A stretch of DNA of 64,000 nt from Macrocystis pyrifera (lineage: Eukaryota; Sar; Phaeophyceae; Laminariales; Laminariaceae). The notes beneath the pieces are model-generated. The model did not search any database, was not told where the DNA came from, and was given only the letters and a program-made list of their open reading frames with translations. The DNA lies in assembly GCA_031763025.1 (NCBI GenBank), contig JASSKH010000028.1:6893324-6957323 (forward strand), written 5' to 3'. Within the stretch, counting starts at the first letter, position 1. Every line of letters starts with the position of its first letter. Shown here one piece after another: positions 22,779 to 56,667 of the stretch. The translations under genes and the position numbers were made by a program.

Positions 22779-22861
22779 ATATTGTACTGCTGTACGAGTA
22801 GCCTATAAGGGAAGAGCAATAGACTCACTGGAAACTGGAAAGGGAGGGCGGGCGGGTTCTT

Positions 22862-23072
22862 CTTTCAACTCGCCGACCTTCTAAGGACATCGAACCCCCG
22901 CTGCTCGCACCCCCACGAGTAGAGTACTACGGTAGATGGTCTTCTTCCTCACTGGTCTTCTTCCTCGCTGTGCCAACCCTTCCCAGGCTGTCTCCCTAGT
23001 TCAACCAACTGCACTCGTCATGAACTATATGCACCTCTTGCCCATCCCTTCTGTCCAAGCATGCCACCGATT
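22862..23072. repeat. DIRS family terminal sequence, copy beside the recombinase
   Basis: Matches 53522-53742 from TCAACTCGCC through CCACGAGTAGAGTACTACGG, GTCAACTG-like blocks and CATGAACTATATGCACCTC to AAGCATGCCA. It is downstream of the recombinase here and upstream of gag in the other piece, as expected of a direct terminal repeat. Confidence 0.85.
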
Positions 23073-23263
23073 AATATGTGCTGGATCTTATCCACACTTA
23101 AACTACAGTAGCTTATATAACACATACCCAAAATAAACGGCCAACTTCTACTTAAACCTACCACACCTTAAACCCACCTTAAACAGTCTCTGCATTATCT
23201 GTGTGCTACCAATCCATTCTGCATGCCTTAACTCTCACACCATCCCCACTCCTAACCCCCACA

Positions 23264-24007: not shown

Positions 24008-24532
24008 TTGACAATCCCTGTTTCAACATGGCCCACGAAATTGGACGCCGAATCCGTTGAGGTTCCCCCTTCAACGCACTCTCCCTCGCAATGCCTGCCT
24101 TCATGGATTTTATGAGGAACTGCTTCATCGGTAATTATATTCCCACTCGGCGATGAAAGTGCTGTACAGCTACCAATTTCCCTTCAACAGTCGACGCTTT
24201 GTTTCCACGAAAAACCTATTAATGCGCCATATACTTCGCGATCTCACTGGCCACCGCCTCCTCCCCCAACTCCATGCCCAAATATACGCTTCTGTGCACA
24301 GCAACTGAACGCCACTGCGTCCACAAACGCCCGGCAGCTTTATAAGTGACGTTTGTCGAAGGAGCCACTCCGACCGTCGCCAATAAGCCTGCAAGCTTCC
24401 CGAGCACATCATTCCACCACTCTCCCCCAAACTCGCCTCCTGCCATTGCACATGCGGGTAAAGGGAAGATAATCGCGAATTAATATTTTCGCGAGGTCAT
24501 TTGGAAATACCATCAGCCAAAACAGTACTGAC

Positions 24533-25006
24533 TCACGGAATATGCGCAGCTTCAAAGCACCAACCAGTTCGCATCTCTATCCTGCCCAAATATCGCACCA
24601 AAAACGCAGCTCTTGGATCACGTGTTCCCCCGCACTTATTAACCCACGTGGCCGCCGACACGTTGTCTCCAAGCGTAACAACGGGCGCTCCAACAATAGT
24701 CGAGTGGTCCGATTCCTGCTCTACCATCACATACGCATTCATTACCATCGCCAGCAATTCCAACAAATTAATTGAAATCATGTTTATGCTTTGCGCACTT
24801 TGCCCTATCTCGGACCTACTTTTCTCTTCAGATGATAAATCGTATCTCCACCACACCCCTGTCTCTACGCAGAAACCTCCAACCGCACTAAGAGTAGCGT
24901 CCGATGACCAATGCCGTTCCGGAATCCATTGCGTGTGAGAAAAACAAGGTAAACACAAGACACACCGTCCACCAAACATGGTTCGTGCAGAGCCCATTTC
25001 CACCAA
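24533..25006 (-). pseudogene. RNase H domain (DIRS fossil)
   Basis: Carries the spaced acidic residues of retroelement RNase H: SSDATLSAVGG, INLLELLAMV and LGDNVSAATWVNK. It lies between the reverse transcriptase and the recombinase, as in DIRS-order elements. This enzyme removes template RNA during reverse transcription. Confidence 0.8.
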
Positions 25007-26241
25007 TCCAAATCCGCGTGAAACTCTTGGCCTAATAATGCAATAGTCCCCTTAGGTACCGCAGCCAACTGCGTGTCACTACACTCCTGCTGGCCTTCCA
25101 GTCCCACCATCAACAATAACCTCCACACAAAGAACCGACCTGGCCTCATGGCCGTGGCGACATGACGCGATTTCCCTGTCAAACTCCACATCTCTCTAGC
25201 AGTTGCGGTCTTTCTAGAGGACGGCCACTTTCGAAACAGCAGTAAAACTCCGTTACGTTTCCGTTCCGGCAATTTCATCCTCATTCGTTGCGTGTCGACG
25301 TCAAAACCCAAACCTTCTTGGCACACCGCCCAATTCGTCAATTTCTTTTGTGGCAAAACAGGCACAGGATTTCTGCTGTCATCCCCAAACATCCTTAAGT
25401 GATCCGAAATCGCAGAAAGTGTTGCTGTTAACAGCCGACTCTCGATACCACGCTTACACGCTTCCAAATTCAGCATGTCATCGACGTACGCACATCTCAA
25501 CGTAAAACTTCGTCTTTGAGTGGCCATGTAGTTCAGGTACGACAACGACGCCAGGAGGAGCACACATCGCCGTTGATCCTTCAGCAGGGACCAGAACCTT
25601 AACATCCTTCGCTCTCAATCGCGCTTCTGGCAAAACCACTGCTGTATTGAAGTCAGTGTTGCGATGCGAATGAAGAATTGCCGCAGCCATCAAACCCCAC
25701 CATCCAAGCGATGAATGCCAACCGAACGCCAACCGAACGCCAACCTGAAATCAATAATAATATACTCCCCTACCACATATGAAAAGGTAGGTGATTTGTC
25801 CCACTCAATGTGAACTCTTCTGAATGCGTCCTTCACGTCCATTTTTGAAAAATAAATGGGCACTTCCGCGCCGACTTGTTCGCGACGCGCGCACGTTTGC
25901 GCGATAAATCTGAATAGGACCTCCCACAAATCACACACAGGCGCTTCGTCGAAGTCAGTGTCTGAGTTCACTCCTTGACCTACTGTCCAATCTAGTATCA
26001 CTCTCACTTTCTTTCGTTCCTCTACCACACCCAATGGGGATATTCTCAAACCCCGAACCGTACATGCTGCCGACCGGTGTAAAGGTAAAACGCGACCACG
26101 CACGATGCCCTCCATGAGCCTGTCCAACAACAAACCACTGTGCTGTAACGTGCTAGAATGATTCCCATATTGCAATGATGCTTCGAAATTTCCTCCCTCG
26201 ATAACATCGACTGGCACTCCGTGCTCAACTGCTTGCATCAA
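24865..26241 (-). pseudogene. Reverse transcriptase domain (DIRS fossil)
   Basis: RT signatures: RVILDWTVGQGVN, the block A motif FSKMDVKDAFRRVHIEWD (about 25810-25860), the block B-like FRLAFGWRS, and the catalytic LRCAYVDDMLNLE (near 25470-25500). The YVDD box and block A wording fit the DIRS/Ngaro type better than Ty3/gypsy or LINE. It sits directly upstream of the RNase H part. Confidence 0.85.
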
Positions 26242-26739
26242 ACGGCATAGAAACCTGTCGAGACGAAATGTTGCTCTATCAAGTTAGCATTACGGTGCGA
26301 AGCTATCAATTTCCCATCCTTCCACCACACTTCAAAGCCCCTGCTGTTGCAGTATCTGCCAGTTTTTGCGAAGCGTTTAATGCATTGGATCTCTCCGCCT
26401 CTCTTTGAATTGCGTTGAAAACATCAGATCTCTCTGTAGTTTCCGCCAATCGTGCCTTGTATTCTGCCAGCCTTTTTCTTGTCTGGTGGTAATCCTCCCC
26501 CAATCTCACCATTTGCTCCGGAATATGACAATCCGAAACCGTTGGATCCACTCCTTCATCGTAACCTGGACCGAAACAGCCACGGTTTGTTTTACACATG
26601 GTATGTTGGCTTATCTTCAAAAAACAAATCCATAACTCGGCACAAATTATGGTCCTCCTTGGTCCCTCAAACGGCGATTGACCATACAAAACCAAGAATA
26701 GTCCTCCTTGCTCGAGCGAATAGCCCATCACAACAATCA

Positions 26740-27520
26740 GCGCACATCATTCACTTTTTATCATGGTCCAGTAATCCCATCACACTAACCAACGAACTTC
26801 GTTCACTTTGTATCATGGTCTCAAACTTTTCATCATGATTCGTCCATCCCATCACAATAGTCATCAAGTTAGATCACTTTGTATCATGGTCCCATCACAA
26901 TGGCCAGCAAACATCGTTCATATTTCATCGTGGCCGATCCATCACAATCATCAGCAAACATCGTTCACTTCATATCGTAGTCCATTCATCACAGTCATCA
27001 GCAAACCTCGTTCACTTCGTATCGTGGTCCATTAATCACAATCGTCAGCAAGCAAAGTTCACTCTGTATCGTGGTCCACTCATCACCATCGTCAGCAAGC
27101 ATCGATGTTCACTTTGCATCATGGTCCATTCATCACATTCGTCAGCAAACATCGTTCACTTTGTATCGTGGTCCATTCATCACAATCGTCAGCAAGCAAA
27201 GTTCACTCTGTGTCGTGGTCCACTCATCATAATCATCAGCAAAACTTCATTCACTTTGTATCGTGGTCTGTTCATCACAATTGTCAGCAAACATCGTTCA
27301 CTTCGTATCGTGGCCTGTTCATCACAATCGTCAGCAAACATCGTTCACTACGTATCGTGGTCCATCCATTCCATCACAATAACCAGCAAAACTTCGTTCA
27401 CTTTGTATCGTGGTCCATTCGTCACAATCGACAGCAAACATCGTTCGCTTTTTATCGTGGTCCATCCATCCCATCACAATAATCAGCAAAAACTTCGTTC
27501 ACTTTTTATCATGGTCCTGT
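26740..27520. repeat. 47-bp minisatellite, main block
   Basis: About 17 units around ATCACAATCGTCAGCAAACATCGTTCACTTTGTATCGTGGTCC. Period measured as 47 bp between 27001 and 27048, with occasional longer units. The overlapping open frames here (27105-27525) are repeat products. It directly abuts the 5' part of the DIRS pol fossil. Confidence 0.85.
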
Positions 27521-27524
27521 TATG

Positions 27525-28344
27525 ATCAAGGTTGCGGGACACTTCGTATCCCTGGACAGGTCTACCTTTTAAGTCGGTAATCGTTGGTACTCACGTGTGT
27601 TGCTTGCTTAGCTATAGAAGAAGAGCAGTTTTATTCCTTTCGTGCACGCGGAGACTGAGACCAAGCTCGTGCGTCTCTGGAAAACCAATCTAAGATACGC
27701 CTTCCAAGTACTACAAATGCGTTCCCAGTGCCTGAACCCAGGTAATTACTGGGCTTTCAACCTCATACAAAGCAGTATCATAACACTAGCCCACTCTGAT
27801 GAGCCGCATATGCAGAATTATGGGAAATGGAAACCCCGATTCCACGAACTAGAACATGAGTCGAAGATGCGGCTCCTCAAAACCCACTCCCACACCTCTG
27901 AACGGCGAGGCAACGAAGGCGGCAAAGTATGTAAAAAAAATAAAGGGAAGACCTAGCCTTAAGGGGCAGGAAGAAATCGCCAATGAAAGCCATCGCCATG
28001 CCGCCCGCACGGGGGGGGGAGGCGAGGAAGATGCATGGAAAAGCGACGAGGGCGTCCAAGTCGTTCGAGGTGACGGGGGGTGCGTCAGTTGGCGGCGGAA
28101 GTCTTAAAAGAGGAGTTCCCACGGGCTCGGTGCGGTCGCGGCCGGACGGGATGGGTACCGTCGGGACGGACGAGGCGACAGGAGTCGGGGCCAAAACGAC
28201 GGGTGCGGGCGGTCACGGCCGTGGGGCTCGCGGCGGGGTGATAGCACGCCGGGCTGGTGGTCTAGGGGCCCCACCGGGCCCGAAGCCGTAATCAACAGCA
28301 GGCGGCACGGTGCCAGCGGCGGCGGCTGTTCGTCGGCGTTTCCA
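27525..28344 (+). other. Coding-like insertion inside the minisatellite
   Basis: This segment interrupts the 47-bp minisatellite, which resumes at 28345. A + frame at 27642-27956 (104 codons, GTG start only) has protein-like composition, including KLVRLWKTNLRYAFQVLQ and KWKPRFHELEHESKMR, and ends in a basic stretch. A second + frame, 27983-28291, is GC-rich and Gly/Arg/Ala-rich. The sharp rise in GC against the AT-rich minisatellite suggests separate origin. No domain recognised. Confidence 0.35.
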
Positions 28345-28545
28345 TTAATCTCATCACAATAATCAGGGAACTTCGTTCACTTTGTATCATGGTCCCATCA
28401 CAATTTCGTTAACTTGTTATCATGGTCCATTCATCCCAGCACAATAATCAGGGAACTTCGTTCACATTATATCATGGTCCCATCACAATAGTTAGCGAAC
28501 TTAATTCACTTTATATCATGGTCCAACCATCCCCTCATAATAATC
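28345..28545. repeat. 47-bp minisatellite, second block
   Basis: Three to four more units of the same repeat (AACTTCGTTCACTTTGTATCATGGTCC). Weak remnants (ATTATATCATAGTCCATCCA) reappear at about 46190-46220, on the far side of the split-repeat element and the fold-back element. Confidence 0.8.
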
Positions 28546-28644
28546 ATGTCTTCCTTGTAAATAAAACAAAATAAAATAGATACCTTCACAATATATTTTC
28601 CTCCTCCATAATAATGATAATAAACATCATTATTTTATTATTAT

Positions 28645-28853
28645 GCAGAATATTCTCGGAAGAATGAGAGAATGTGAGTTTTGTACGTACGAAAGAAGTT
28701 CAAGCCAATCAGATGACTGCGGTGATTCACGGTAGCATGAATCGTAGCCCTTGGTACACACACCTTGTCTGGTACGTAGCCGCAACCTACACGTATCAGC
28801 GCAGTGAAGCAGAAGCAGAGCTACAGGTCCAAGGTGTGAGACTAGTTTGAGTT
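28645..28853 (+). repeat. Split direct repeat A1
   Basis: Begins GCAGAATATTCTCGG right after an ATT-rich flank and ends GACTAGTTTGAGTT. Same length as A2 at 42455-42663, about five substitutions. Confidence 0.92.
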
Positions 28854-29867
28854 CGAAGAGGGCTCTGTGTTGAGCGTTCGATCTGATCTGTTTGAACGCT
28901 GAGCAGGCAGGGTTTTCGCCAGCCAGACATTTCTTTATTTTTATTTTGTTGATCGAGGCACCTTCCTTGGAGAGACTCGTTCGTGGTGTCTTGTGAGTGT
29001 ACGAGAGGTGCTAGCTGGGAGTGTGGACGGAAGACCTTGGGGACTATGTCGGAGGGCATGGCAAGCTTGGCCGGACAAGCCAGCACAGGAACGAATCGGC
29101 AAGATCGGTATCTCCGGTATGTCGTAGCACAGCGAGACGTTACAGGGGATGTGTACTGCTGTAGCACAGTGTGACGTTACCCGGGATGTTGCGCCCTCGG
29201 TGGTATCATTATGTTCGCAACTTGCAAACACATGCGTACAGCAGTGATGTGTCGGTAGTGTGTGCTTGCGGGAATATTATATTATACCAGACGCGAGTAT
29301 GCATACTCTCGTACTTTTGCTTGGTACCAAACTCGAGGAAAGGCACGATTATTAATAGTAAATATGACGGGTTCAGCAGAAGTGCGGACACAGCAGCAGG
29401 GTTCGTGCAGCAGTGGTCGTACGTTCTTTCAAGTGCTCGTACTTTTATTAATAATATTAATGCGAAATATCATACCTCACGCGAGACTTTTATCGGTGGT
29501 ACCAAACTCGAGAAAAGGTTATGTGAGTATGACTGGTAAAGCCATGCGTATACATCAGTGTTCGTGCAGCAGTGGTTGTATGTCAAATGCTCGTACAGGG
29601 GTATACTACCAATGTGTGGGATAGCGGTTTCCCGAAACTGGGGCCTGTGCAGTATTCTGGTAGAGCGTACTCTGAGCTATTGGCGCTCTGATTGTTTCTT
29701 GGTGGTATGAGATTATCAGAGCATACAGGCTGTGTAGCTGGTAGCGGTGGTAGCTGGTATTTTATTGTCCTTCGCTACAATACTACGTAGATTGGGGTCT
29801 AACTGGTACCGGTTGCTCCACTGTAGCTTAACTACCTATGGTGGTACAAGTTGCTGGTCGCGAATCG
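28854..29867. other. Interior left of the satellite; internal ~185-bp duplication
   Basis: The block TGGTACCAAACTCGAG(G/A)AAAGG followed by TTCGTGCAGCAGTGGT and AATGCTCGTAC/AAGTGCTCGTAC appears at about 29321-29440 and again at about 29498-29595. No reverse transcriptase, gag or other domain was seen where a normal element would carry them. Confidence 0.5.
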
Positions 29868-32854
29868 GGGGGGTCGCGTCGGCTTCCTCGTGCATATTAC
29901 TTTAGCCGTTAATCCGGGAGAAGTTTTCACGAGCGGGTTCGTGACCTCCGTGGGTACACCGGGTATCGCCGCCGAAGCGGATTTCGTCGGTTCTCGTTTC
30001 TTCGTCTGCGTAGGACCCGTCCACAGGGGGGTCGGGGGTGCTGTCACAGTGTGTGCGCCTGCTTCAGCGAAACAGGTTGAATCTTGTTGACTTCGTCGTC
30101 CATGTTTCGTGTGCGGTTCATTCGGGGGAGCGTGTGCCATAAGTTGGACCATGTGCTATTGTAGTGCGCACGTCTGTTTCAGCGAAGCACGTGTCGCAAC
30201 TCCTTGACTCCCGTGTCCGTGTCTCGTGTGCCGCTCATCCGGGGAAGCATGTGCCACACGTTGGACTGTGTGCTGTTGCGGCATGTGCGTCTGCTTCAGC
30301 ACTACAAGTGTCGCGACTCGTCGGCTTTCTCGTGCATATCACCAGTCGACAGGGGGACGGTGTGCTGTCGCAGTGTGTGCGCCTGCTTCAGCGAAGCAGG
30401 TGTCGTATCTCGTTGACGTCCTTGTCCATGTTTCGTGGTGCTATTGCAGTGCGTACGTCTGTTTCAGCGAAGCAGTCGTCACTCTTTGGCTCCTCGTCCA
30501 TGTTTCGTGTGGCGTTCATCTGGGGAAGCATGTCTCACAAGTTGGACAGTGTGATGAGTAAGCATGTGCATTTGCTCCAGAGCTACGCGTCCATGTTTCG
30601 AGTGCGTTTGTCGTTCATCCTGGGAAGCGTGTGCCACAAGTTGGACCGTGTGCTATCGCACTCTGTTGCAGCGAAGCAGGTGTCACTCTTTGGCTCCCCG
30701 TCCATATTGCGTGTGCCGTTTATCCGGGAATCCGGGGAAGCGTGTGCCACAGGTTGGACCGTGTGCTATTGCGGCGCGTACGTCTGTTGCAGCGAAGCAG
30801 GTGTCACTCTTTGGCCCCGCGTCCGTATTGCGTGTGTCGTTCATCCGGGGAGGCGTGTGCCACAAGTTGGACAGTGTGCTATTGCAGTGTGTACGTCTGT
30901 TTCAGCGAAGCAGGTGTCACTCTTTGGCTCCCCGTCCGAATTTCGTGTGCCGTTTATCCGGGGAAGCGTGTGCCACAAGTTGGACCGTGTGCTGCCGCAC
31001 TGCGTACGTCTGTTTCAGCGAAGAAGGTGCCACTCTTTGGCTCCCCGCCCGTATTTCGTGTGCCATTCACCCGTGAATCCGGGGAAGCGTGTGCCACAAG
31101 TTGGACCGTGTGCTATTGCAGTGCGTACGTCTGTTGCAGCGAAGCAGGTGTCACTCTTTGGCTCCCCGTCCGTGTTTCGTGTGTTGTTCATCCGTGAATC
31201 CGGGGAACCGTGTGCCACAAGTATGACCGTGTGCTATTGCAGTGCGTACGTCTGTTTCAGCGAAGCAGGTGTCACTCTTTGACTCCTCGTCCGTGTTTCG
31301 TGTGCCGTTCATCCGGGGAGGCGTGTGCCACAAGTTGGACCGTGTGCTATTGCAGTGCGTACGTCTGTTTCAGCGAAGCAGGTGTCACTCTTTGGTTCCC
31401 CATCCGTATTTCGTGTGCCGTTTATCCGGGGAGGCGTGTGCCACAAGTTGGACCGTGTGCTATTTCAGTGCGTACGTCCGTTTCATGTCACTATTTGTCT
31501 CCCCGTCCGTGTTTCGTGTGCCGTTCATACGAGGAGGCGTGTGCCACAAGTTAGATCGTGTGCTATCGCAGTGCGTACGTCTGTTTCAGCGAAGCAGGTG
31601 TCACTCTTTGGCTGCCCGTACGTTTTTCGTGTGCCGTTTATCTGGGGGAGCGTGTGCCACAAGTTGGACCGTGTGCTATCGCACTACGTACGTCTGGTTC
31701 AGCGAAGCAGGTGTCACTCTTTGGCTCCCCGTCCGTGTTTCGTGTGCCGTTCATACGGGAATCCGGGGAAGCGTGTGCCACAGGTTGGACCGTGTACCAA
31801 TGCAGTGCGTACGTCTGTTTCAGCGAAGCAGGTGTCACTCTTTAGCTCCCCGTCCGTGTTTTGCTTGCCGTTTATCGGGGGGGGAAGGGTGTGCCACTTG
31901 TTGGATCGTGTGCTATTGCAGTGCGTACGTCTGTTTCAGTGGAGCAGGTGCCACTCTTTGGCTCCCCGTCCGTGCTTCGTGTGCCGTTCATCCGTGAAAC
32001 CGGGGAAGCCTGTGCCACAAGTTGGACCGTGTGTTATTGCAGTGCGTACGTCTGTTGCAGCGAAGCAGGTGTCACTCTTTGGCTCCCCGCCCGTGTTTCG
32101 TGTGCTGTTCATCCGTGAATCCGGAGAAGCGTGTGGCACAAGTTGGACCGTGTGCTATTGCAGTGCGTACGTCTGTTGCAGCGAAGCAGGTGTCACGCTT
32201 TGGCTCCCCGTCCGTGTTTCGTGTGCCGTTCGTCCGTGAATCCGGGGAAGCGTGTGCCACAAGTTGGACCGTGTGCTATTGCAGTGCGTACGTCTGTTTC
32301 AGCGAAGCAGGTGTCACCCTTTGGCTCCTCGTCCGTGTTTCGTGTGCCGTTTTTCCGGGGAAGCGTGTGCCACAAGTTGGACCGTGTACTATTGCAGTGC
32401 CTAACGTCTGTTTCAGCGAAGCAAGTGTCACTCTTTGGCTCGCCGTCCGTGTTTGGTGTGCAGGTCATCCGGGGAAGCATGTGTCACAAGTTGGACAGTG
32501 TGCTGATGCAGCATGTGCATCTGCTCCAGCGCTACGAGTACGTGTTTCGTATTCGTTTGTCGTTGATCCGGGGGGGGGTGTGCCACAAGTTGGACCGTGT
32601 GCTATGGTAGTGCGTACGTCTGTTTCAGCGAAGCAGGTGTCGCAACGTTTTGGCTCCCATGTCCATGTTCGTGTGCCGTTTATCAGGGGAAGCATGTGGC
32701 ACAAGTTGGACTGGGTGCTATTGCAGTGCGTACGTCTGTGTCAGCGGAGCAAGTGTCACTCTTTGGCTCCCCGTTCGTGTTTCGTGTGCCTTTTATTCGG
32801 GGACGCGTGTGCCACAGGTTGGACCGTGTGCTATCGCAGTGCGTACGTCTGTTT

Positions 32855-35800
32855 CAGGGAAGCAGGTGCCACTCTTTGGTCCCCCGTCCGTGTTTCGTGT
32901 GCCCTTCATCCGGGGAAGCGTGTGCCACAGGTTGGACGTGTACTATTGCATTGCGTACGTCTGCTTCAGCGAAGCAGGTGTCACTCTTAAGCTCCCCGTC
33001 CATGTTTCGTGTGCCGTTCATCCGGGGAAGCGTGTGCCACAAGTTGGACCGTGTGCTATCGCAGTGCGTGCCTCTGTTTCAGCGAAGCACGTGCCACTCT
33101 TTGGCTACCCGTCCGTATTTCGTGTGCCGTTTATCCGGGGGAGCGTGTGCCACAAGTTGGACCGTGTGCTATCGCAGTGCGTACGTCTGTTTCAGCGAAG
33201 CAGGTGTCAGTCGTTGGCTCCCCGTCCGTGTTTCGTGTGCCGTTTATCCGGGGAAGCGTGTGCCACAAGTTGGACCGTGTGCTATTGCAGTGCGTACGTC
33301 TGTTTCAGCGAAGCAGGTACCACTCTTTGGGTTCCCGTCCGTGTTTCGTGTGATGTTCACCCGGAGGAGCGTGTGCCACAGGTTGGACCGTGTACTATTG
33401 CAGTTCGTACGTCTGTTTCAACGAAGCCGGTGTCAATCTTTGGCTCCCCGTCCGTATGCTGTGTGCCGTTTGTCCGGGGAAGCGTGTGCCACAAGTTGGA
33501 GCGGATGCTATTGCAGTGCGTACGTTTGTTTCAGTGGAGCAGGTGCCACTCTTTGGCTCCCCGTCCGTGCTTCGTGTGCCGTTCATCCGTGAAACCGGGG
33601 AAGCCTGTGCCACAAGTTGGACCGTGTGCTATTGCAGTGCGTACGTCTGTTTCAGCGAAGCAGGTGTCAGTCGTTGGCTCCCCGTCCGTGTTTCGTGTGC
33701 CGTTTATCCGGGGAAGCGTGTGCCACAAGTTGGACCGTGTGCTGTCGCAGTGCGTACGTCTGTTTCAGCGAAGCAGGTACCACTCGTTGGGTTCCCGTCC
33801 GTGTTTCGTGTGCTATTCACCCGGAGGAGCGTGTGCCACAGGTTGGACCGTGTACTATTGCAGTTCGTACGTCTGTTTCAACGAAGCCGGTGTCAGTCTT
33901 TGGCTCCCCGTCCGTATGCTGTGTGCCGTTTATCCGGGGAAGCGTGTGCCACAAGTTGGAGCGGGTGGTATTGCAGTGCGTACGTTTGTTTCAGTGGAGC
34001 AGGTGTCACTATTTGGCTCCCCGTCTGTGTTTCGTGTGCCGTTTATCCGGGGAAGCGTGTGCCACAAGTTGTACCGTGTGCTATTGCAGTGCGTACGTCT
34101 GTTGCAGCGAAGCAGGTGTCACTCTTTGGCTCCCCGTCCGTGTTTCGTGTGCCATTCATCCGTGAATCCGGGGAAGCGTGTGCCACAAGTTCGACCGTGT
34201 GCTATTGCAGTGCGTACGTCTGTTTCAGCGAAGCAGGTGCCACTCTTTGGCCCCCCGTCCGTGTTTCGTGTGTCATTTATCCGGGGAAGCGTGTGCCACA
34301 AGTTGGACCGTGTACTATTGCAGTGCCTAACGTCTGTTCAGCGAAGCAGGTGTCACTCTTTGGCTCCCCGTCCGTGTTTCGTGTGCAGTTCATCCGGGGA
34401 AGCATGTGTCACAAGTTGGACAGTGTGCTGATGCAGCATGTGCACCTGCTCCAGCGCTACGCGTCCATGTTTCTTTTTCGTTTGTCGTTGATCCGGGGGA
34501 GCGTGTGCCGCAAGTTGGACCGTTTGCTATTGCAGTGCGTACGTCTCGTTCAGCGAAGCAGGTGTCATTCGTTGGCTCCCCGTTCGTGTTTCGTGTGCCT
34601 TTCATTCGGGCAAGCGTGTGCCACCAGTTGGACCGTGTGCTATCGCAGTGCGTACGTCTATTTCAACGAAGCAGGTGCCACTCTTTGGCTCCCCGTCCGT
34701 GTTTCGTGTGCCGTTCACCCGGAGGAGCGTGTGCCACAGGTTGGACCGTGTACTATTGCAGTGCGTACGTCTGTTTCAGCGAAGCAGGTACCACTCTTTG
34801 GGTTCCCGTCCGTGTTTCGTGTGCTGTTCACCCGGAGGAGCGTGTGCCACAGGTTGGACCGTGTACTATTGCAGTTCGTACGTCTGTTTCAACGAAGCCG
34901 GTGTCAGTCTTTGGCTCCCCGTCCGTGTGCTGTGTGCCGTTTGTCCGGGGAAGCGTGTGCCACAAGTTGGAGCGGGTGCTATTGCAGGGCGTACGTTTGT
35001 TTCAGTGGAGCAGGTGTCACTCTTTGGCTCCCCGTCTGTGTTTCGTGTGCCGTTCATCCGTGAAACCGGGGAAGCCTGTGCCACAAGTTGGACCGTGTGC
35101 TATTGCAGTGCGTACGTCTGTTTCAGCGAAGCAGGTGTCAGTCGTTGGCTCCCCGTCCGTGTTTCGTGTGCCGTTTATCCGGGGAAGCGTGTGCCACAAG
35201 TTGGACCGTGTGCTATCGCAGTGCGTACGTCTGTTTCAGCGAAGCAGGTACCACTCGTTGGGTTCCCGTCCGTGTTTCGTGTGCTATTCACCCGGAGGAG
35301 CGTGTGCCACAGGTTGGACCGTGTACTATTGCAGTTCGTACGTCTGTATCAACGAAGCCGGTGTCAGTCTTTGGCTCCCCGTCCGTATGCTGTGTGCCGT
35401 TTATCCGGGGAAGCGTGTGCCACAAGTTGGAGCGGGTGGTATTGCAGTGCGTACGTTTGTTTCAGTGGAGCAGGTGTCACTATTTGGCTCCCCGTCTGTG
35501 TTTCGTGTGCCGTTTATCCGGGGAAGCGTGTGCCACAAGTTGTACCGTGTGCTATTGCAGTGCGTACGTCTGTTGCAGCGAAGCAGGTGTCACTCTTTGG
35601 CTCCCCGTCCGTGTTTCGTGTGCCATTCATCCGTGAATCCGGGAAAGCGTGTGCCACAAGTTCGACCGTGTGCTATTGCAGTACGTACGTCTGTTTCAGC
35701 GCAGCAGGTGCCACTCTTTGGCCCCCCGTCCGTGTTTCGTGTGTCATTTATCCGGGGAAGCGTGTGCCACAAGTTGGACCGTGTACTATTGCAGTGCCTA

Positions 35801-38740
35801 ACGTCTGTTCAGCGAAGCAGGTGTCACTCTTTAGCTCCCCGTCCGTGTTTCGTGTGCAGTTCATCCGGGGAAGCATGTGTCACAAGTTGGACAGTGTGCT
35901 GATGCAGCATGTGCACCTGCTCCAGCGCTACGCGTCCATGTTTCTTTTTCGTTTGTCGTTGATCCGGGGGAGCGTGTGCCGCAAGTTGGACCGTTTGCTA
36001 TTGCAGTGCGTACGTCTCGTTCAGCGAAGCAGGTGTCATTCGTTGGCTCCCCGTTCGTGTTTCGTGTGCCTTTCATTCGGGCAAGCGTGTGCCACCAGTT
36101 GGACCGTGTGCTATCGCAGTGCGTACGTCTATTTCAACGAAGCAGGTGCCACTCTTTGGCTCCCCGTCCGTGTTTCGTGTGCCGTTCACCGGAGGAGCGT
36201 GTGCCACAGGTTGGACCGTGTACTATTGCAGTGCGTACGTCTGTTTCAGCGAAGCAGGTACCACTCTTTGGGTTCCCGTCCGTGTTTCGTGTGCTGTTCA
36301 CCCGAAGGAGCGTGTGCCACAGGTTGGACCGTGTACTATTGCAGTTCGTACGTCTGTTTCAACGAAGCCGGTGTCAGTCTTTGGCTCCCCGTCCGTGTGC
36401 TGTGTGCCGTTTGTCCGGGGAAGCGTGTGCCACAAGTTGGAGCGGGTGCTATTGCAGGGTGTACGTTTGTTTCAGTGGAGCAGGTGTCACTCTTTGGCTC
36501 CCCGTCTGTGTTTCGTGTGCCGTTCATCCGTGAAACCGGGGAAGCCTGTGCCACAAGTTGGACCGTGTGCTATTGCAGTGCGTACGTCTGTTTCAGCGAA
36601 GCAGGTGTCAGTCGTTGGCTCCCCGTCCGTGTTTCGTGTGCCGTTTATCCGGGGAAGCGTGTGCCACAAGTTGGACCGTGTGCTATCGCAGTGCGTACGT
36701 CTGTTTCAGCGAAGCAGGTACCACTCGTTGGGTTCCCGTCCGTGTTTCGTGTGCTATTCACCCGGAGGAGCGTGTGCCACAGGTTGGACCGTGTACTATT
36801 GCAGTTCGTACGTCTGTTTCAACGAAGCCGGTGTCAGTCTTTGGCTCCCCGTCCGTATGCTGTGTGCCGTTTATCCGGGGAAGCGTGTGCCACAAGTTGG
36901 AGCGGGTGGTATTGCAGTGCGTACGTTTGTTTCAGTGGAGCAGGTGTCACTATTTGGCTCCCCGTCTGTGTTTCGTGTGCCGTTTATCCGGGGAAGCGTG
37001 TGCCACAAGTTGTACCGTGTGCTATTGCAGTGCGTACGTCTGTTGCAGCGAAGCAGGTGTCACTCTTTGGCTCCCCGTCCGTGTTTCGTGTGCCATTCAT
37101 CCGTGAATCCGGGAAAGCGTGTGCCACAAGTTCGACCGTGTGCTATTGCAGTACGTACGTCTGTTTCAGCGCAGCAGGTGCCACTCTTTGGCCCCCCGTC
37201 CGTGTTTCGTGTGTCATTTATCCGGGGAAGCGTGTGCCACAAGTTGGACCGTGTACTATTGCAGTGCCTAACGTCTGTTCAGCGAAGCAGGTGTCACTCT
37301 TTAGCTCCCCGTCCGTGTTTCGTGTGCAGTTCATCCGGGGAAGCGTGTGTCACAAGTTGGACAGTGTGCTGATGCAGCATGTGCACCTGCTCCAGCGCTA
37401 CGCGTCCATGTTTCTTTTTCGTTTGTCGTTGATCCGGGGGAGCGTGTGCCGCAAGTTGGACCGTTTGCTATTGCAGTGCGTACGTCTCGTTCAGCGAAGC
37501 AGGTGTCAGTCGTTGGCTCCCCGTCCGTGTTTCGTGTGCCGTTTATCCGGGGAAGCGTGTGCCACAAGTTGGACCGTGTGCTATCGCAGTGCGTACGTCT
37601 GTTTCAGCGAAGCAGGTACCACTCGTTGGGTTCCCGTCCGTGTTTCGTGTGCTATTCACCCGGAGGAGCGTGTGCCACAGGTTGGACCGTGTACTATTGC
37701 AGTTCGTACGTCTGTTTCAACGAAGCCGGTGTCAGTCTTTGGCTCCCCGTCCGTATGCTGTGTGCCGTTTATCCGGGGAAGCGTGTGCCACAAGTTGGAG
37801 CGGGTGGTATTGCAGTGCGTACGTTTGTTTCAGTGGAGCAGGTGTCACTATTTGGCTCCCCGTCTGTGTTTCGTGTGCCGTTTATCCGGGGAAGCGTGTG
37901 CCACAAGTTGTACCGTGTGCTATTGCAGTGCGTACGTCTGTTGCAGCGAAGCAGGTGTCACTCTTTGGCTCCCCGTCCGTGTTTCGTGTGCCATTCATCC
38001 GTGAATCCGGGAAAGCGTGTGCCACAAGTTCGACCGTGTGCTATTGCAGTACGTACGTCTGTTTCAGCGCAGCAGGTGCCACTCTTTGGCCCCCCGTCCG
38101 TGTTTCGTGTGTCATTTATCCGGGGAAGCGTGTGCCACAAGTTGGACCGTGTACTATTGCAGTGCCTAACGTCTGTTCAGCGAAGCAGGTGTCACTCTTT
38201 AGCTCCCCGTCCGTGTTTCGTGTGCAGTTCATCCGGGGAAGCATGTGTCACAAGTTGGACAGTGTGCTGATGCAGCATGTGCACCTGCTCCAGCGCTACG
38301 CGTCCATGTTTCTTTTTCGTTTGTCGTTGATCCGGGGGAGCGTGTGCCGCAAGTTGGACCGTTTGCTATTGCAGTGCGTACGTCTCGTTCAGCGAAGCAG
38401 GTGTCAGTCGTTGGCTCCCCGTCCGTGTTTCGTGTGCCTTTCATTCGGGCAAGCGTGTGCCACCAGTTGGACCGTGTGCTATCGCAGTGCGTACGTCTAT
38501 TTCAACGAAGCAGGTGCCACTCTTTGGCTCCCCGTCCGTGTTTCGTGTGCCGTTCACCCGGAGGAGCGTGTGCCACAGGTTGGACCGTGTACTATTGCAG
38601 TTCGTACGTCTGTTTCAGCGAAGCAGGTGTCACTCTTTGGCTCCCCGTCCGTGTTTCGTTTGCAGTTCATCCGGGGAACGATGTGTCACAAGTTGGACAG
38701 TGTGCTGATGCATCATGTGCATCTGCTCGAGCGCTACGCG
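32855..38740 (+). repeat. Higher-order repeat core of the satellite
   Basis: Successive copies of a ~1471-bp, 13-unit block: open frames starting at 33617, 35088 and 36558 encode almost the same 182 residues, and minus-strand frames at 34119, 35590 and 37060 likewise. The following copy is shortened to 898 bp (about 8 units). Near-identity between copies, against visible divergence between neighbouring 113-bp units, means the block itself was amplified recently. Confidence 0.9.
34618..38004 (+). other. Longest repeat-derived open frame (1128 codons)
   Basis: Because 113 is not a multiple of three, any + frame cycles through all three frames of the unit, giving a 339-bp (113-residue) super-period. 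The product is Cys-rich, with recurring CATSWTVCYCSAYVC, SAKQVSLFGSPSVFRVPFIR and CFVCRLSGEA blocks. Long frames overlap in all three + frames (for example 32650-34431, 34406-35902, 35877-36533). No initiation context, splice site, signal peptide or known domain supports translation; the A-poor strand explains the lack of stops. Listed so it is not mistaken for a gene. Confidence 0.75.
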
Positions 38741-41359
38741 TCCGTGTTTCGTATGCGTTTGTCTTTCATCTGGTGGAGCGTGTGCCACATGTTGGACCGT
38801 GTGCTATGGTAGTGCGTACGTCTGTTTCAGCGAAGCAGGTGTCGCAACTCTTTGGCTTCCCCGTCCATGTTTCGTGTGCCGTTCATCCGGGGAAGCGTGT
38901 AGCACAAGTTGGACCGTGTGCTATCGCGATGCGTGCCTCTGTTTCAGCGAAGCAGGTGCCACTCTTTGGCTACCCGTCCGTATTTCGTGTGCCGTTTATC
39001 CGGGGGAGCGTGTGCCACAAGTTGGACCGTGTGCTACTGCAGTGCGTACGTCTGTTTTAGCGAAGCAGGTGTCAGTCGTTGGCTCCCCGTCCGTGTTTCG
39101 TGTGCCGTTTATCCGGGGAAGCGTGTGCCACAAGTTGGACCGTGTGCTATCGCAGTGCGTACGTCTGTTTCAGCGAAGCAGGTGCCACTCTTTGGCTCCC
39201 CGTCCGTGTTTCGTGTGCTGTTCACCCGGAGGAGCGTGTGCCACAGGTTGGACCGTGTACTATTGCAGTTCGTACGTCTGTTTCAACGAAGCCGGTGTCA
39301 ATCTTTGGCTCCCCGTCCGTATGCCGTGTGCCGTTTATCCGGGGAAGCGTGTGCCACAAGTTGTACCGTGTGCTATTGCAGTGCGTACGTTTGTTTCAGT
39401 GGAGCAGGTGTCACTATTTGGCTCCCCGTCTGTGTTTCGTGTGCCGTTTATCCGGGGAAGCGTGTGCCACAAGTTGTACCGTGTGCTATTGCAGTGCGTA
39501 CGTCTGTTGCAGCGAAGCAGGTGTCACTCTTTGGCTCCCCGTCCGTGTTTCGTGTGCCATTCATCCGTGAATCCGGGGAAGCGTGTGCCACAAGTTCGAC
39601 CGTGTGCTATTGCAGTGCGTACGTCTGTTTCAGCGAAGCAGGTGTCACTCTTTGGCTCCCCGTCCGTGTTTCGTGTGCATTTCGTCCGGGGAAGCATGTG
39701 CCACAAGTTGGACAGTGTGCTGATGCAGCATGTGCACCTGCTCCAGCGCTACGCGGCCATGTTTCGTTTTCGTTTGTCGTTGATCCGGGGGAGCGTGTGC
39801 CACAGGTTGGACCGTGTGCTATTGCAGTGCGTACGTCTGTTTTAGCGAAGCAGGTGTCATTCGTTGGCTCCCCGTCCGTGTTTCGTGTGCCTTTCATTCG
39901 GGGAAGCGTGTGCCACCAGTTGGACCGTGTGCTATCGCAGTGCGTACATCTGTTTCAACGAAGCAGGTGCCACTCTTTGGCTCCCCGTCCGTGTTTCGTG
40001 TGCCGTTCACCCGGAGGAGCGTGTGCCACAGGTTGGACCGTGTACTATTGCAGTGCGTACGTCTGTTTCAGCGAAGCAGGTGTCACTCTTTGGCTCCCCG
40101 TCCGTGTTTTGTTTACAGTTCATCCGGGGAACGATGTGTCACAAGTTGGACAGTGTGCTGATGCATCATGTGCATCTGTTCGAGCGCTACGCGTCCATGT
40201 TTCGTATGCGTTTGTCTTTCATCCAGTGGAGCGTGTGCCACATGTTGGACCGTGTGCTATGGTGCGTACATTTGTTTCAGCGAAGCAGGTGTCGCAACTC
40301 TTTGGCTTCCCCGTCCATGTTTCGTGTGCCGTTCATCCGGCGAAGCATGTGGCACAAGTTGGACTGTGCGCTGTTGCAGAATGTGCATCTGCTCCAGCGC
40401 TACAGGTGTCGCGACTCGTCGTCTTCCTCGTGCATGTTTCGTTAGCTGTTTATCCGGTGGAAGGTCTTCGCGATATGTTTGGTGACCTCCGCGGGCACAC
40501 CGCGTATCGCCGCCAAAGCGAATTGCGTCGGTTCTCGTTTCTTCGTCTGCGTACCACCCGTCCACTGGGGGGGGGGACGGTGTGCTGTCGCAGCGTGTGC
40601 GCCTGGTTCAGCGATGCAGGCGTCGCGTTTGTTGGCGCCCTCGTCCTTGTTTCATGTGGCGTTCATTCGCGGAAGCGTTTGCCACAGGTTGGACCGGGTG
40701 TGTTGCAGTGTGTGGGTGTGCTTCAGCGCTGCATGTCAGATATTTGCAGATGTCGCAACTCGTCGGCTTCCTCGTGCATGTTTTGTTTGCCATTCGTCCG
40801 GGGAAGCATGTGTTACACGTTGGACTGTGTGCCGTTGCAGTGTGTGCATCTGGTTCAGCGCCGCGCACGCGTCGCAACTCGTCGGCTTCCTCTCCTCGCG
40901 CATGTCCGTGTGCCGGTCATCTGGGGGGGTTCTTCGCAACGCGTTTCGTGGTGTCCGTGGGTACACCGCGTATCTCCGCCGTCGCGGATTTCATGGGTAC
41001 CTGTTTCTTCGTATGCGTAACAGCCGCCTAGAAGGTGGGATGGTGTGCTGTTGCAGTGTGTGCGTCTGCTTCAGCGAAGCATGTGTCGCATCTTGGTGTT
41101 TCTTCGTATGCGTAACACCCGTCCACAGGGGGAGGAAGTGTCCTGTTGCAGTGTGTGCATCTGCTTCAGCGAAGCAAGTGTCGCAACTTGTTGACTTCGT
41201 CGCCCTTATTTCGTGTGTCGTTCATCTGGGGAAGTATGAGCCACACGTTGGTTTGTGTGCTGTTGCAGTGCGTGTGCGCAGTACCCGTCCATAGGCGGGG
41301 AAGGTGTGTTGTTTCAGTCAGTCAGTGATTTTCTGTCCTGATCCGCGAGCATTCATTCT

Positions 41360-42168
41360 TGGGCAATTTTTTTCCCAGGTGTTTTTTGTTTTTTCCCCAC
41401 CTGGTTTCTTTTTCCCCTTGTGTTCTGCGAGTTGGGCTGTTGATCCCGTCCGTGTGCGACGGACTGATGTTGACTCCAATCGCGAAACCGTTCAACTTGC
41501 AGCGCAGTGCAGCCCGCCTTGAGGTGTGGTTTCGTGAGTTGAAAGGTGACCTGCTTGGGAAAGGGGCAGTTTCTACGTGTGTTCGGGTGTGGGTTCGTTG
41601 CGCACGTTCGCACGTTCACGTGTATGTCCTGCTACTACCTTTGTTTTTCCTCGCCGGACCCCTCGTTACGTGCTGCGTCTGCAGCGGCGGATGCTCTATA
41701 TGGACTCCGCTTCAACGGCCGATAACCCAGCGACGAGTAATTGCGTTGGTGGGAGTGTGCGCACGGAGGAGTACGCTCGGCACCACCGAGGATTGGAGGC
41801 GCAACGAACTCGTCTACAGGGGGGAGCTGTACCAGAGGGGTTGCAGCCCGGCGGTCGATGGATGTGTTTCGCCACGGGGCAGGACGCCATCTGGATAGCA
41901 AACGGAGTGGCCTAGGAGGGTCTTGACAATGGGATCCCGCCGAACCTGGGCGGGAGCGGGTTGATCCACCTAAGGTGTTGCAGCGTGAGGGCCGATGGGC
42001 GTCCGATGCGTCCGATGCGTACAAGGCGTGTGTTCGCAGTCACGGAAAGGATGCCAGTTGGGTAGCAGACGTTATGGCCCAGGAAGGAATTAGCGGTGGG
42101 ATCCAGCCGGGCCAGGGCACTGAGTGGGAGCGAGTTAATTCACTCTTAGAGGTGACTAGGCAGAAGTA
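41360..42168 (+). pseudogene. Tyrosine recombinase remnant of the split-repeat element
   Basis: The last frame (41975-42168) shows LQREGRWASDASDAYKACVR with the expected catalytic Tyr, then IQPGQGTEWERV, closely resembling the end of the DIRS recombinase at 23264 (QRQGRWKS..., TQPGQGTKWGG). Upstream, ARLEVWFRELKGDLLGKGAV (in 41359-41898) resembles DRVELLFRGLKGD of that copy. The remnant ends ~110 bp before repeat B1, the normal place for a recombinase in PAT/Ngaro elements. It is broken. Confidence 0.72.
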
Positions 42169-42278
42169 AATACTGAAGAAGTGTGTTATCATATGCGTTC
42201 CCTATGAGATTGCAAATGGGAGGGGGAAGGGGTCGTAAGAATACATCAGTAAATAGGGTCAACTCCCATGTGTGATGG

Positions 42279-42454
42279 AGGCTGGCGTCGAGAGTTCTGT
42301 GTCGCCAGTTGGGTTGGGAGTTGACTCGAGTATTCGGATGTTAGCGTGGGGTTGCCGTTGGGGCAGCCCCGGGGTGGTCACCCCTTCTCCAACCCCCTTT
42401 TCCGGGCGGGGGGTTGCGCATTAATATAATACAACTTCGAAAGCAAAGTGCAAA
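42279..42454 (+). repeat. Split direct repeat B1
   Basis: Runs from AGGCTGGCGTCGAG to CGAAAGCAAAGTGCAAA and abuts A2 without a gap. Same length as B2 at 43132-43307. Contains a GGGGCAGCCCCGGGGTGG palindrome-rich core. Confidence 0.92.
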
Positions 42455-42663
42455 GCAGAATATTCTCGGAAGAATGAGAGAATGTGAGTTATGTACGTAC
42501 GTAAGAAGTTCAAGCCAATTAGATGACTGCGGTGATTCACGGTAGCATGAATCGTAGCCCTTGGTACACACACCTTGTCTGGTACGTAGCCGCAACCTAC
42601 ACGTATCAGCGCAGTGAACCAGAGGCAGAGCTACAGGTCCAAGGTGTGAGACTAGTTTGAGTT
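42455..42663 (+). repeat. Split direct repeat A2
   Basis: Second copy of A1; starts GCAGAATATTCTCGG immediately after B1, ends GACTAGTTTGAGTT. Confidence 0.92.
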
Positions 42664-43131
42664 ACCACCCACCCGCCCGTGCTTTTGAGGGAGTCAGTGG
42701 GGGGGAGTTCAATAGTCGCAGTAACGTTTGCGTTTGTTGCTGTATGTTTTACGTACACAGTAATTTCGCTGATGGTGCGACCGGGTGTCGTAGATTGCAC
42801 GAGTGGCGGCGTGGGCTAGCCGCCTTCTTTGGCGTTTGGTATTGTTCGATGCAAGTGAGGTTTCTTTATATCATACTATTAGTTGATACAAGTAAAGTGG
42901 CGTTGACGTGGAGTTGCATCGGCTCGGATTTTGCGCGCAATCTGAAAGTATAGGAGAAGGGGGCTATCCGTATATTAACATTGAAATGCATTGTGAGTTT
43001 AAATGTACTTGTGTTATTTGTGTATGCCTGGTACAAGTGCGTGTCGATTTTTTCACGTGTGAGGTTACCTTGCACTTAGTGTGGTTTCTCGAGTTATTTG
43101 TCAGAAACGGCTTTTCTGATAGCGGTTTGGT
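42664..43131. other. Segment between A2 and B2
   Basis: 468 bp without a recognisable domain, inside the split-repeat element. Short + strand frames (42657-42953, 42908-43177) are unassigned. Confidence 0.4.
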
Positions 43132-43307
43132 AGGCTGGCGTCGAGTGTTCTGTGTCGCCAGTTGGGTTGGGAGTTGATTCGAGTATACGGATGTTAGCGT
43201 GGGGTTGCCGTTGGGGCAGCCCCGGGGTGGTCACCCCTTCTCCAACCCCCCTTTCCGGGCGGGGGGTTGCGCATTAATATTATACAACTTCGAAAGCAAA
43301 GTGCAAA
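43132..43307 (+). repeat. Split direct repeat B2 (right outer end)
   Basis: Second copy of B1. It ends at GTGCAAA and is followed at once by an ATT microsatellite. Confidence 0.92.

Positions 43308-43352
<45 letters not shown>
43308..43352. repeat. (ATT)n microsatellite
   Basis: About 15 ATT triplets, directly at the right edge of B2. The left edge of A1 (28625-28644) is also ATT-rich, so this was probably the insertion target. Confidence 0.9.
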
Positions 43353-43353
<1 letters not shown>

Positions 43354-43372: not shown

Positions 43373-46104
43373 GGGTAATGCTATTTGCGACACCGGTGTC
43401 GTAATTTCTTATTTGCGACATGGTGCCGCAAATAAGCGGCTTATTTGCGACACCGCGTCACGTTCGCGGCACATACTTCAGATTGGCTCCGCATCGCCAG
43501 AGATGTGTTGACATGGTGCAGGGCCATCATTGAAGCTATCGCATGGCCGAAACGGGCCAGGATTCGAGGAGATATCTGGCATCCTGGTGCACCCGCAAAA
43601 CGTTCAGATCGGTGTCGCAAATAAGCGTTATTTGCGACACGCGTGTCGCAAATACCGTATTTGCGACACCGCGACGTGGTTGCCGCACACGCTCCGGATC
43701 GGCGACGTACTACCAGTAGAGTCTCAGCATGGTGTAAAGCTACCATTGAAGCTATCGTGTAGCCTAAACGGGCCAGTACTCGAGGAGATATGGGGTATCC
43801 TAGTACACCTAGGCTGATGTCGCAAATAAGCCTGATTTTGCGTGTATCTAGAACGAGCCCATTACAGTAGTAGATACTGCTGTGTGTTGTATCCTGGTCA
43901 TCCTGGTGCACTGTCAGAGTAGTCAGACTGGTGTCGTAAAGCCGCATTTTGACGACATCGCACGACGTGCGTCGCGCGCGCCCCGTTTAGAACTCGGACT
44001 ATACCACTGTACAGCATGTTTCCACGAGTACATCGATCGTTAGCCACGTCATCGTGAATCAATGGATTTGAAATTAACATGGTTATATTGCCGCGCCGTA
44101 TTCTAATAAGTCGTACGTACTATAATTGAGAGCGCTGGTATCGTTCAAAGCGCCGGGTGCTCTGTTTACGCGTCGATTAACATGGGCACAAATGCATGGG
44201 CACAAATGAAGGGCACAGAAGTTTGTGCATGCTGCGCTCTGTATATGGTTTTTGTACTTGTCTGTGGATGCTATCGAAATAGGTGGGTGTATGTCATTTA
44301 CAGCAGTATCATAGTATCGCAGTAAAATCGGCGTTCGTTCCGTGCAACCATCACCATCCACCAATGTGGTTGTTTAATTGCCCTTGAACAACCGTGTAAA
44401 AGCGTCTATCCCTCAGGCGTTTACCAACGCTTATCGTTCTGCCGCACAGAACTGAACAAACTTTCGAAACGCTGTGCACAGTTTTTGTCGGATTAGTTAA
44501 GGTAACGAACACACCCCATAGACGCACAGAGGGCGGCCATACTGCAGCTTGCCTAGCTATGCGCCATGTTCGTTGTACGCGCTCGTTCCGACACATTATC
44601 CTACTTGTTGCACCAACAGCAGTCCACAGTACACTGCTGTAGTATTGACACATACTAATAATAATCATAGTCTAACTTAGGGCACATAGCACGTAGTTTG
44701 TAAACGGATTCCCGATGTTTATCTCTAACGGTTGTGAAACATACAATAGAAACCCACAGCAGACTGCATGAGTTCAATGTGAGCGGCGCCTTGTTTATGG
44801 TGCCGAAGAAATTGGTATGTGTAACGCGTGTAGGAGGTCGTGGAGTTTGTAGGCTGCTTGGAAGGTGTCCTTCGATGCCCTGCAGTATTGTGTAGAGTTC
44901 CCACCGTGCTGTTGTATGCTGTACACACTGGTGCGCGGGTTGGATGTTTTTCCAATAAGTTCAGGCAGAATGTTTGCGGAGAGAAGCCCAACCATTATGT
45001 GAGATTCACCAGCATCCGGCAACTCCAGCAGATTGTGCGCACTGACCTGCCCCACTCAAATCATGCGTAGTCTCCTCGTCCAGCTACCCAGTCAATTCCC
45101 GATTATTTTGGATGCCCTGGTCGGCGAGGCAGTCTGATGGGTTATGTATAGTTTTCGCACTCCTAGCCTACGGTGTTTGTGTGTTTACTATGTTGTATGT
45201 AGCACAGCAACAGTAGTAGAAGAGCCACGTTGAATATTCTGACCGTGTACTAGGATAACCCATATCTCCTCGAGTACTCGCCCGTTTTGGCTACACGATA
45301 GCTTCAATCGTAGTCCTACACCATGCAGAGACTTTACTGGTAGTGCGCCGACCCGGAGCGTGTGCGGCAACTACAACGCGGCGTCGCAAATACGATATTT
45401 GCGACACGCGTATCGCAAATAAGGCTTATTTGCGACACCAGCCAGAAGATTCTGCGGGTTGTACCAGGATACCCCAAATCTCTTCGAGTACTGGCCCGTT
45501 TTGGCTACAGGATGGCTTCAATGGTAGCCTTACACCATGCTGAGACTCTACTGGTAGTGTTTTGCCGATCCGGAGCGTGCAGCAACCACGGCGCGGTGTT
45601 GCAAATACGGTATTTGCGACACGCGTGTCGCGAATAAGGCCTATTTTTATTTGCGACAGGAGCCAGAAGATTCTGCGGGATGTACCAGGATACCCCATAT
45701 CTCCTCGAATACTGGCCCGTTTAGGCTACAGGATAGCTTCAATGGTAGCCCTACACCATGCTGAGACTCTACTGGTAGTACGTCGCCGATCCGGAGCGTG
45801 TGCGGCAACCACGTCGCGGTGTCGCAAATACGGTATTTGCGACACCGATCTGAACGTTTTGCGGGTGCTCCAAGAGGCCAGATATCTCCTCGAGTCCTTG
45901 CCCGTTTCGGCCATGCGATAGCTTCAATGATGGCCCTGCACCATGCCAACACATCTCTGGCGGTGCGGAGCCAATCTGAGGTATGTGCCGCGAACGTGAC
46001 GCGGTGTCGCAAATAAGCGGCTTATGTCGCAAATAAGCGGCTTATTTGCGACACCGTGTCGCAAATAAGAAATTACGACACCGGTGTCGCAAATAGCATT
46101 ACCC
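43373..46104. mobile_element. Fold-back/TIR element with TTTGCGAC palindrome arrays (2.7 kb)
   Basis: The left end GGGTAATGCTATTTGCGACA and the right end, ending in TGTCGCAAATAGCATTACCC, are inverted. Similarity continues inward for ~450 bp (43373-43830 against 45650-46104). The arms consist of ~200-225-bp units containing CTCGAGTACTGGCCCGTTT, ATAGCTTCAATG, CACCATGCTGAGACTCTAC and GATCCGGAGCGTG, separated by palindromes of GTCGCAAATA(C) facing (G)TATTTGCGAC. Two units lie on the left and about four on the right. A ~1.1-kb central part (44050-45180) is different and holds only short ORFs. It sits in ATTT-rich DNA, so the target duplication is unclear. No transposase found; non-autonomous. Confidence 0.85.
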
Positions 46105-56625: not shown

Positions 56626-56667
56626 CTGATTTCAACCACCCGGGTGCCCGGCGGGTATACCAGTCAG

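What the first reader, a model, noticed from the sequence alone, without database searches (positions are those of the whole stretch)
28645..43307. Exact A1...B1-A2...B2 split direct repeats frame a 14.7-kb tyrosine-recombinase element
A1 and A2 are each 209 bp; B1 and B2 are each 176 bp; B1 and A2 abut without a base between them. The outer edges (left of A1, right of B2) both fall in ATT-rich DNA, and a tyrosine-recombinase end lies just before B1. This is the layout of PAT/Ngaro-type DIRS elements. What is unusual is the interior: no reverse transcriptase or gag is visible and ~11.4 of 14.7 kb is a satellite. Repeat similarity of ~97-98 percent by eye points to a recent insertion.
Basis: partly seen in the sequence, partly recalled or inferred. 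Interest (0 to 1): 0.85.

Follow-up and report, generated by a model that had tools for sequence, protein, structure and literature searches.

The report
Satellite-filled tyrosine-recombinase retrotransposon relic
A 14.7-kb jumping-gene copy has the paired end repeats of a tyrosine-recombinase retrotransposon, but most of its interior is a 113-base tandem repeat array that seems older than this insertion and to have kept changing after it.

Summary
A1 (28645-28853) and A2 (42455-42663), 209 bp, and B1 (42279-42454) and B2 (43132-43307), 176 bp, differ at 5 sites per pair; B1 and A2 abut; no further copies lie in the window. This is the A1-[interior]-B1A2B2 layout of Ngaro/PAT-like elements. 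Both outer ends lie in one in-phase (TAT)n tract. Before B1 sits a broken recombinase C-terminus matching a neighbouring ORF (tblastn 6e-9). No gag or reverse transcriptase was recognised. Instead 29877-41278 is a 113-bp satellite: 98 monomer slots, a 1470-bp higher-order repeat, decayed edges, no sign of coding. Monomers differ by 16% on average against 2.6% between terminal repeats, so much of the array seems older than this insertion and was probably carried in. Adjacent 1470-bp blocks differ by 0.27%, so it kept amplifying or homogenising afterwards. Best reading: a non-autonomous Ngaro/PAT-type element carrying a satellite; Ogre LTR elements are the published parallel. No genome is held, and eight scans of viral and prokaryote collections gave no relative, so movement as a family is unproven.

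The parts
28629..28644 (.). Left flank, end of an ATT-rich tract that finishes in TATTATTAT
   Evidence: printed
28645..28853 (+). Split direct repeat A1 (left end of the element)
   Evidence: 97.6% to A2 over 209 bp
28854..29876 (+). About 1 kb of unique interior; holds one diverged internal duplication (29235-29442 / 29404-29596, 66%)
   Evidence: no match to the window's gag/RT/RH/YR ORFs below E 0.02; duplication
29877..41278 (+). Satellite array, 113-bp unit, with decayed edges; best-aligned span 30038-40926 in 98 slots
33073..37484 (+). Three successive 13-monomer higher-order blocks (33073-34543, 34544-36014, 36015-37484)
37485..38382 (+). Eight-monomer partial block, 0.3% from blocks b and c
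41494..42169 (+). Broken tyrosine-recombinase C-terminal remnant; matched pieces 41494-41550 and 41966-42127, stop at 42167-42169
   Evidence: tblastn E 0.02 and 6e-9, blastp 2e-10, frames, stop
42279..42454 (+). Split direct repeat B1
   Evidence: 97.2% to B2 over 176 bp
42455..42663 (+). Split direct repeat A2, directly after B1
42664..43131 (+). 468-bp spacer between A2 and B2, not found elsewhere in the element or window
43132..43307 (+). Split direct repeat B2 (right end of the element)
43308..43353 (.). Right flank, (TAT)15 tract in phase with the left flank

Best explanation
The interval is one insertion of a non-autonomous tyrosine-recombinase retrotransposon of the Ngaro/PAT type. Its ends and its B1A2 junction are intact, its gag-RT-RH part is gone, its recombinase is a pseudogene, and its interior is a 113-bp satellite array. 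Inferred history: an element lineage acquired a tandem array and lost its coding part; the array diverged while the lineage still moved with enzymes supplied in trans by autonomous relatives; a DNA circle with a B-A junction inserted into a (TAT)n tract without visible target duplication; after insertion, segments of several monomers were duplicated or homogenised by unequal exchange or gene conversion. Shown: layout, recombinase remnant, absence of recognisable gag/RT, array structure, divergence contrasts. Inferred: mobilisation in trans, circular intermediate, order of gene loss and array growth.
For: Repeat layout and single occurrence of A and B pairs, as published for Ngaro-like, PAT-like and VIPER-like elements (PMC8547959 passages; PMC6681497 passages). 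Recombinase remnant in sense orientation ending 109 bp before B1. In-phase (TAT)n on both sides. Array older than insertion: mean pairwise monomer divergence 16.2% (95 monomers), 13.9% in 84 core monomers, 82 of 83 neighbouring core monomers above 4.8%, against 10/385 between terminal repeats. Later change: blocks b and c differ at 4/1470 (Fisher P 6e-5), b and d at 3/898 (P 6e-4). Decayed edges (14.9% and 21.9% from consensus against 6-9% inside).
Against: One copy only; no relative found, in collections of viruses and prokaryotes. The recombinase call rests on weak profile matches of the neighbour ORF (Pfam E 0.3; PHROG E 0.21) plus similarity of the remnant to it; the remnant itself hits no Pfam family and only a PHROG of unknown function (E 0.007). 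Blocks a and b as a whole (40/1471, P 1.0) and block e (2.7-3.2% from the others) are not younger than the insertion. The age argument assumes one clock for satellite and ends.
Confidence: 0.7

Rival explanations
1. An autonomous Ngaro/PAT element inserted whole and then, in place, lost gag-RT-RH while an array formed in it or a pre-diverged array piece was transferred into it. The satellite was never cargo.
For: Post-insertion change is shown (4/1470 between blocks). Only one copy is known, so carriage is not shown directly.
Against: Monomer divergence (16.2% mean) is about six times that of the terminal repeats. A transferred piece should have sharp, homogeneous edges; both edges here are the most diverged part, and left and right edge share a longer diverged unit (29877-30331 with 40417-40892, 76%).
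Confidence: 0.2
2. Two tandem copies of an 853-bp LTR-like unit (A-spacer-B), the first of which was broken open by unrelated DNA; not a split-repeat retrotransposon.
For: B1 and A2 abut end to end, as tandem units would.
Against: The 468-bp spacer of the second unit has no counterpart beside A1 or before B1 (best hit 17 bp, E 0.25); a simple insertion would leave it in two pieces. The recombinase remnant lies in sense just before B1, where Ngaro layout puts it.
Confidence: 0.05
3. The layout or the array length is an assembly artefact.
For: Exact repeats up to 753 bp in the array are places where assemblies fail, so the number of higher-order blocks could be wrong.
Against: Most monomers are distinct (40 single-linkage clusters of 95 at 4.8%), the edges are unique, and the target tract is in phase on both sides.
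Confidence: 0.05

Closest known systems
Ngaro-like / PAT-like (and VIPER-like) retrotransposons, DIRS order
   Same: A1-[interior]-B1A2B2 split direct repeats, recombinase gene last before B1, no visible target duplication
   Different: No recognisable gag, RT or RH; recombinase broken; interior is a satellite; 14.7 kb against about 6 kb in Cafeteria (PMC8547959, passages)
Ogre LTR retrotransposons with tandem arrays that gave rise to satellites (Lathyrus, PMC7004042, abstract and passages)
   Same: Tandem array inside a retrotransposon that occasionally expands and forms higher-order repeats
   Different: LTR ends and DDE integrase (recalled) instead of split repeats and tyrosine recombinase
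Helentron non-autonomous elements with central satellite-like repeats (oyster; seen in the search listing and a passage of PMC9659126)
   Same: Non-autonomous element that disperses satellite-like repeats
   Different: Class II rolling-circle elements (recalled) without split direct repeats

Membership tests
Ngaro/PAT-like retrotransposon | Split direct repeats in the order A1 - interior - B1A2 - B2 | tested here: met
Ngaro/PAT-like retrotransposon | Tyrosine recombinase gene at the 3' end of the interior | tested here: met
   As a broken remnant only; tblastn 6e-9 to a neighbouring ORF that matches integrase profiles weakly
Ngaro/PAT-like retrotransposon | gag and RT-RNase H genes | tested here: not met
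   No match below E 0.02 to the window's own gag-like/RT/RH ORFs in 28854-30037, 40927-42278 and 42664-43131; the rest of the interior is satellite. Hence a non-autonomous derivative, not a full member; a very divergent gag could be missed
Ngaro/PAT-like retrotransposon | No target-site duplication | tested here: inconclusive
   None visible, but a duplication in multiples of 3 bp would be hidden in the (TAT)n tract
PAT-like as against Ngaro-like | RT/RH phylogeny | not testable with these tools
   RT/RH absent from the element; criterion from PMC6681497 passages
Satellite DNA | Long head-to-tail array with a homogenised core and higher-order structure | tested here: met
Satellite DNA | Abundant or clustered in the genome beyond this element | not testable with these tools
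   No genome held
LTR retrotransposon | Same direct repeat at both outer ends | tested here: not met
   Left end is A1, right end is B2

The most novel reading that the evidence does not exclude
A family of tyrosine-recombinase elements has become a satellite carrier: parasites of autonomous Ngaro/PAT elements that keep only the ends and the B1A2 junction, carry kilobases of satellite through an RNA and a DNA circle, and seed new satellite arrays in microsatellite targets, where the arrays go on growing. The circular stage could itself amplify the array.
Probability: 0.3. Interest if true: 0.68.

Novelty: new variant of a known kind. Interest (0 to 1): 0.47.

Why it matters
It joins two subjects usually described apart: split-repeat tyrosine-recombinase retrotransposons and the birth of satellites inside mobile elements. 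A review of transposon-derived repeats has no occurrence of 'DIRS', 'Ngaro' or 'tyrosine recombinase' in its main text (PMC9659126, find). Eight library searches (capped listings) listed no paper whose title or start of abstract describes a satellite inside such an element; most listed papers were not opened. Because the terminal repeats date the insertion, a locus like this can place array growth before and after insertion on one scale.

Tried and rejected
Coding satellite: the array has stop-to-stop frames up to 1170 aa, but 113 is not a multiple of 3, a unit without any + strand stop arises in about 5% of first-order simulations, and variants that make stops are not avoided (17 of 151 distinct variants in 84 core monomers, 17.2 expected). 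Rejected.

Structure of the neighbouring recombinase ORF: single-sequence AlphaFold gave mean pLDDT 34 and was useless; no fold search was run.

Relatives: six scans of viral contigs and two of genome contigs gave no relative; three stretches each matched a peptide pattern but none was confirmed. These collections hold viruses and prokaryotes, so absence says little. Three PDB sequence searches, NCBIfam, Rfam at gathering scores and ARAGORN gave nothing; PHROGs gave only weak rows.

B pair of the neighbouring older element: not found.

Full report
Observation. Self-comparison of the window finds A1 28645-28853 with A2 42455-42663 (209 bp, 97.6%) and B1 42279-42454 with B2 43132-43307 (176 bp, 97.2%), ungapped and in direct orientation. 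Each pair has 5 differences. B1 and A2 touch. A sensitive search finds no further copy of A or B in the window, and the B1-A2 junction word occurs once, with none in 100 shuffles.

Ends. Left of A1 the sequence ends in TATTATTAT and right of B2 it begins TATTATTAT, in phase; TRF reports about 15 TAT copies on the right. This fits insertion into one (TAT)n tract with no visible duplication, though a duplication of a multiple of three bases would be invisible there.

Interior. Five ORFs of the window (gag-like, two RT pieces, RH, YR; gag-like and RH named by position, not by a database match) were compared by tblastn with 28854-30037, 40927-42278 and 42664-43131. Left of the array nothing scores below E 0.02 (best 0.024). 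Between array and B1 lies a recombinase remnant: 41966-42127 matches the C-terminal end of the ORF at 24022-23264 (tblastn 6e-9; blastp 2e-10, 22 of 54 identical), a piece at 41494-41550 matches at E 0.02 (blastp 0.005), and the frames between are broken by stops. The reading ends at a stop at 42167-42169, 109 bp before B1. The neighbour ORF is only weakly like integrases: Pfam Phage_integrase E 0.3, below the curated cut-off, and PHROG integrase E 0.21, over residues that include HSGR and a later Tyr (HxxR...Y motif recalled). The remnant itself hits no Pfam family and one PHROG of unknown function (E 0.007). The naming therefore also rests on the neighbour's gene order: an ORF with a weak RVT_1 match (E 0.17) and an ORF with YVDD (motif recalled) lie upstream of it.

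Satellite. TRF gives a 113-bp unit over 30662-40159 and related longer periods. A wrap-around alignment divides 30038-40926 into 98 slots, 95 of them with at least 90 aligned positions. Similarity extends over 29877-41278, 11.4 of 14.66 kb. A 13-monomer block of 1470-1471 bp occurs three times in a row (33073-37484), followed by an 8-monomer block. Edge monomers are the most diverged: 14.9% (six on the left) and 21.9% (five on the right) from the consensus, against 6-9% inside.

Not coding. The unit has no stop on the + strand, which happens in about 5% of first-order random units; of 151 distinct variants in 84 core monomers 17 make a stop, 17.2 expected. There is no sign of selection for an open frame.

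Relative ages. The terminal repeats differ at 10 of 385 sites, 2.6% (Poisson 95% CI 1.25-4.8%). A published model implies that A1/A2 and B1/B2 are nearly identical at insertion (PMC6681497, passages). Monomers differ by 16.2% on average (95 monomers) and by 13.9% among 84 core monomers; 82 of 83 neighbouring core monomers differ by more than 4.8%. In a simple simulation with every pair at 4.8% the mean stays 4.8% although the largest pair reaches about 13.5%, so single distances prove nothing but the mean does. Single-linkage clusters number 40 at a 4.8% cut, 20 at 8% and 14 at 10%. On a shared clock some 20 monomers or more (about 2 kb) were thus probably present when this copy inserted; the exact number is soft.

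After insertion. Blocks b and c differ at 4 of 1470 sites, less than the terminal repeats (Fisher P 6e-5), and b and d at 3 of 898 (P 6e-4). Blocks a and b as a whole differ at 40 of 1471, no less than the terminal repeats (P 1.0); 34 of these lie in the first 500 positions and 6 in the remaining 970 (P 0.004; a split chosen after seeing the data). A fifth, partial block e (39051-39835) is 2.7-3.2% from the others, so not younger. Part of the array was duplicated or homogenised after insertion, and part is older.

Mechanism. The most likely course is a non-autonomous Ngaro/PAT-type element that carried a tandem array, inserted through a recombinase supplied by a relative, and whose array went on changing by unequal exchange or conversion. 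[quoted passage not shown] Mobilisation in trans and the circular stage are inferred.

Alternatives. Growth only after insertion conflicts with the monomer divergence unless the satellite mutates much faster or a pre-diverged piece was brought in; the decayed edges speak against the latter. A pair of tandem LTR-like units with an insert conflicts with the missing spacer. Misassembly of the block number cannot be excluded.

Setting. No whole genome is held for the window, so no genome-wide test was possible. From the repeat types I take the source to be a brown alga, but this is recalled and no call shows it. In Ectocarpus 15 Ngaro and 5 PAT-like families are reported (PMC12477816: passages, outline, section 5 part 1 and section 10 seen). 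That study reclassified families with more than 60% tandem-repeat overlap as tandem repeats, so elements of the present kind could be hidden in such annotations (inference).

Verdict. A real, well-preserved structure and a new variant of a known kind: a split-repeat recombinase retrotransposon whose interior is a satellite. Its interest would rise sharply with a second copy.

Noticed in passing
22857-26400 and 51400-53740, minus strand: Possibly the two halves of one older element of the same kind that encloses the finding: 53517-53740 and 22857-23076 are 93.75% alike in the same orientation, a gag-like ORF lies downstream of the first (51687-52715, weak CCCH zinc finger, E 0.013) and RT/RH/YR ORFs upstream of the second (23264-26283). 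Its repeat divergence (6%) exceeds the 2.6% of the inner element, as nesting would predict; no B pair was found.
   Followed up: partly
26724-27521 and 28341-28546: A second, unrelated tandem array (47-bp unit, TRF calls period 47 and 144) just left of A1, split by about 0.8 kb of other sequence.
   Followed up: no
43373-43838 and 45232-46104: Related repeats in inverted and direct copies with short palindromes around TGTCGCAAATAA, directly right of the (TAT)n tract.
   Followed up: no
278-1318 versus 55417-58824: A dispersed repeat of about 1 kb in several copies, 75-89% alike, with the copy at 278-1318 inverted to those at 55417-58824.
   Followed up: no
59117-59776 and 2519-2986: hAT transposase C-terminal dimerisation domain (Pfam 2.6e-16) and a reverse-transcriptase fragment (RVT_1 6e-8).
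   Followed up: no
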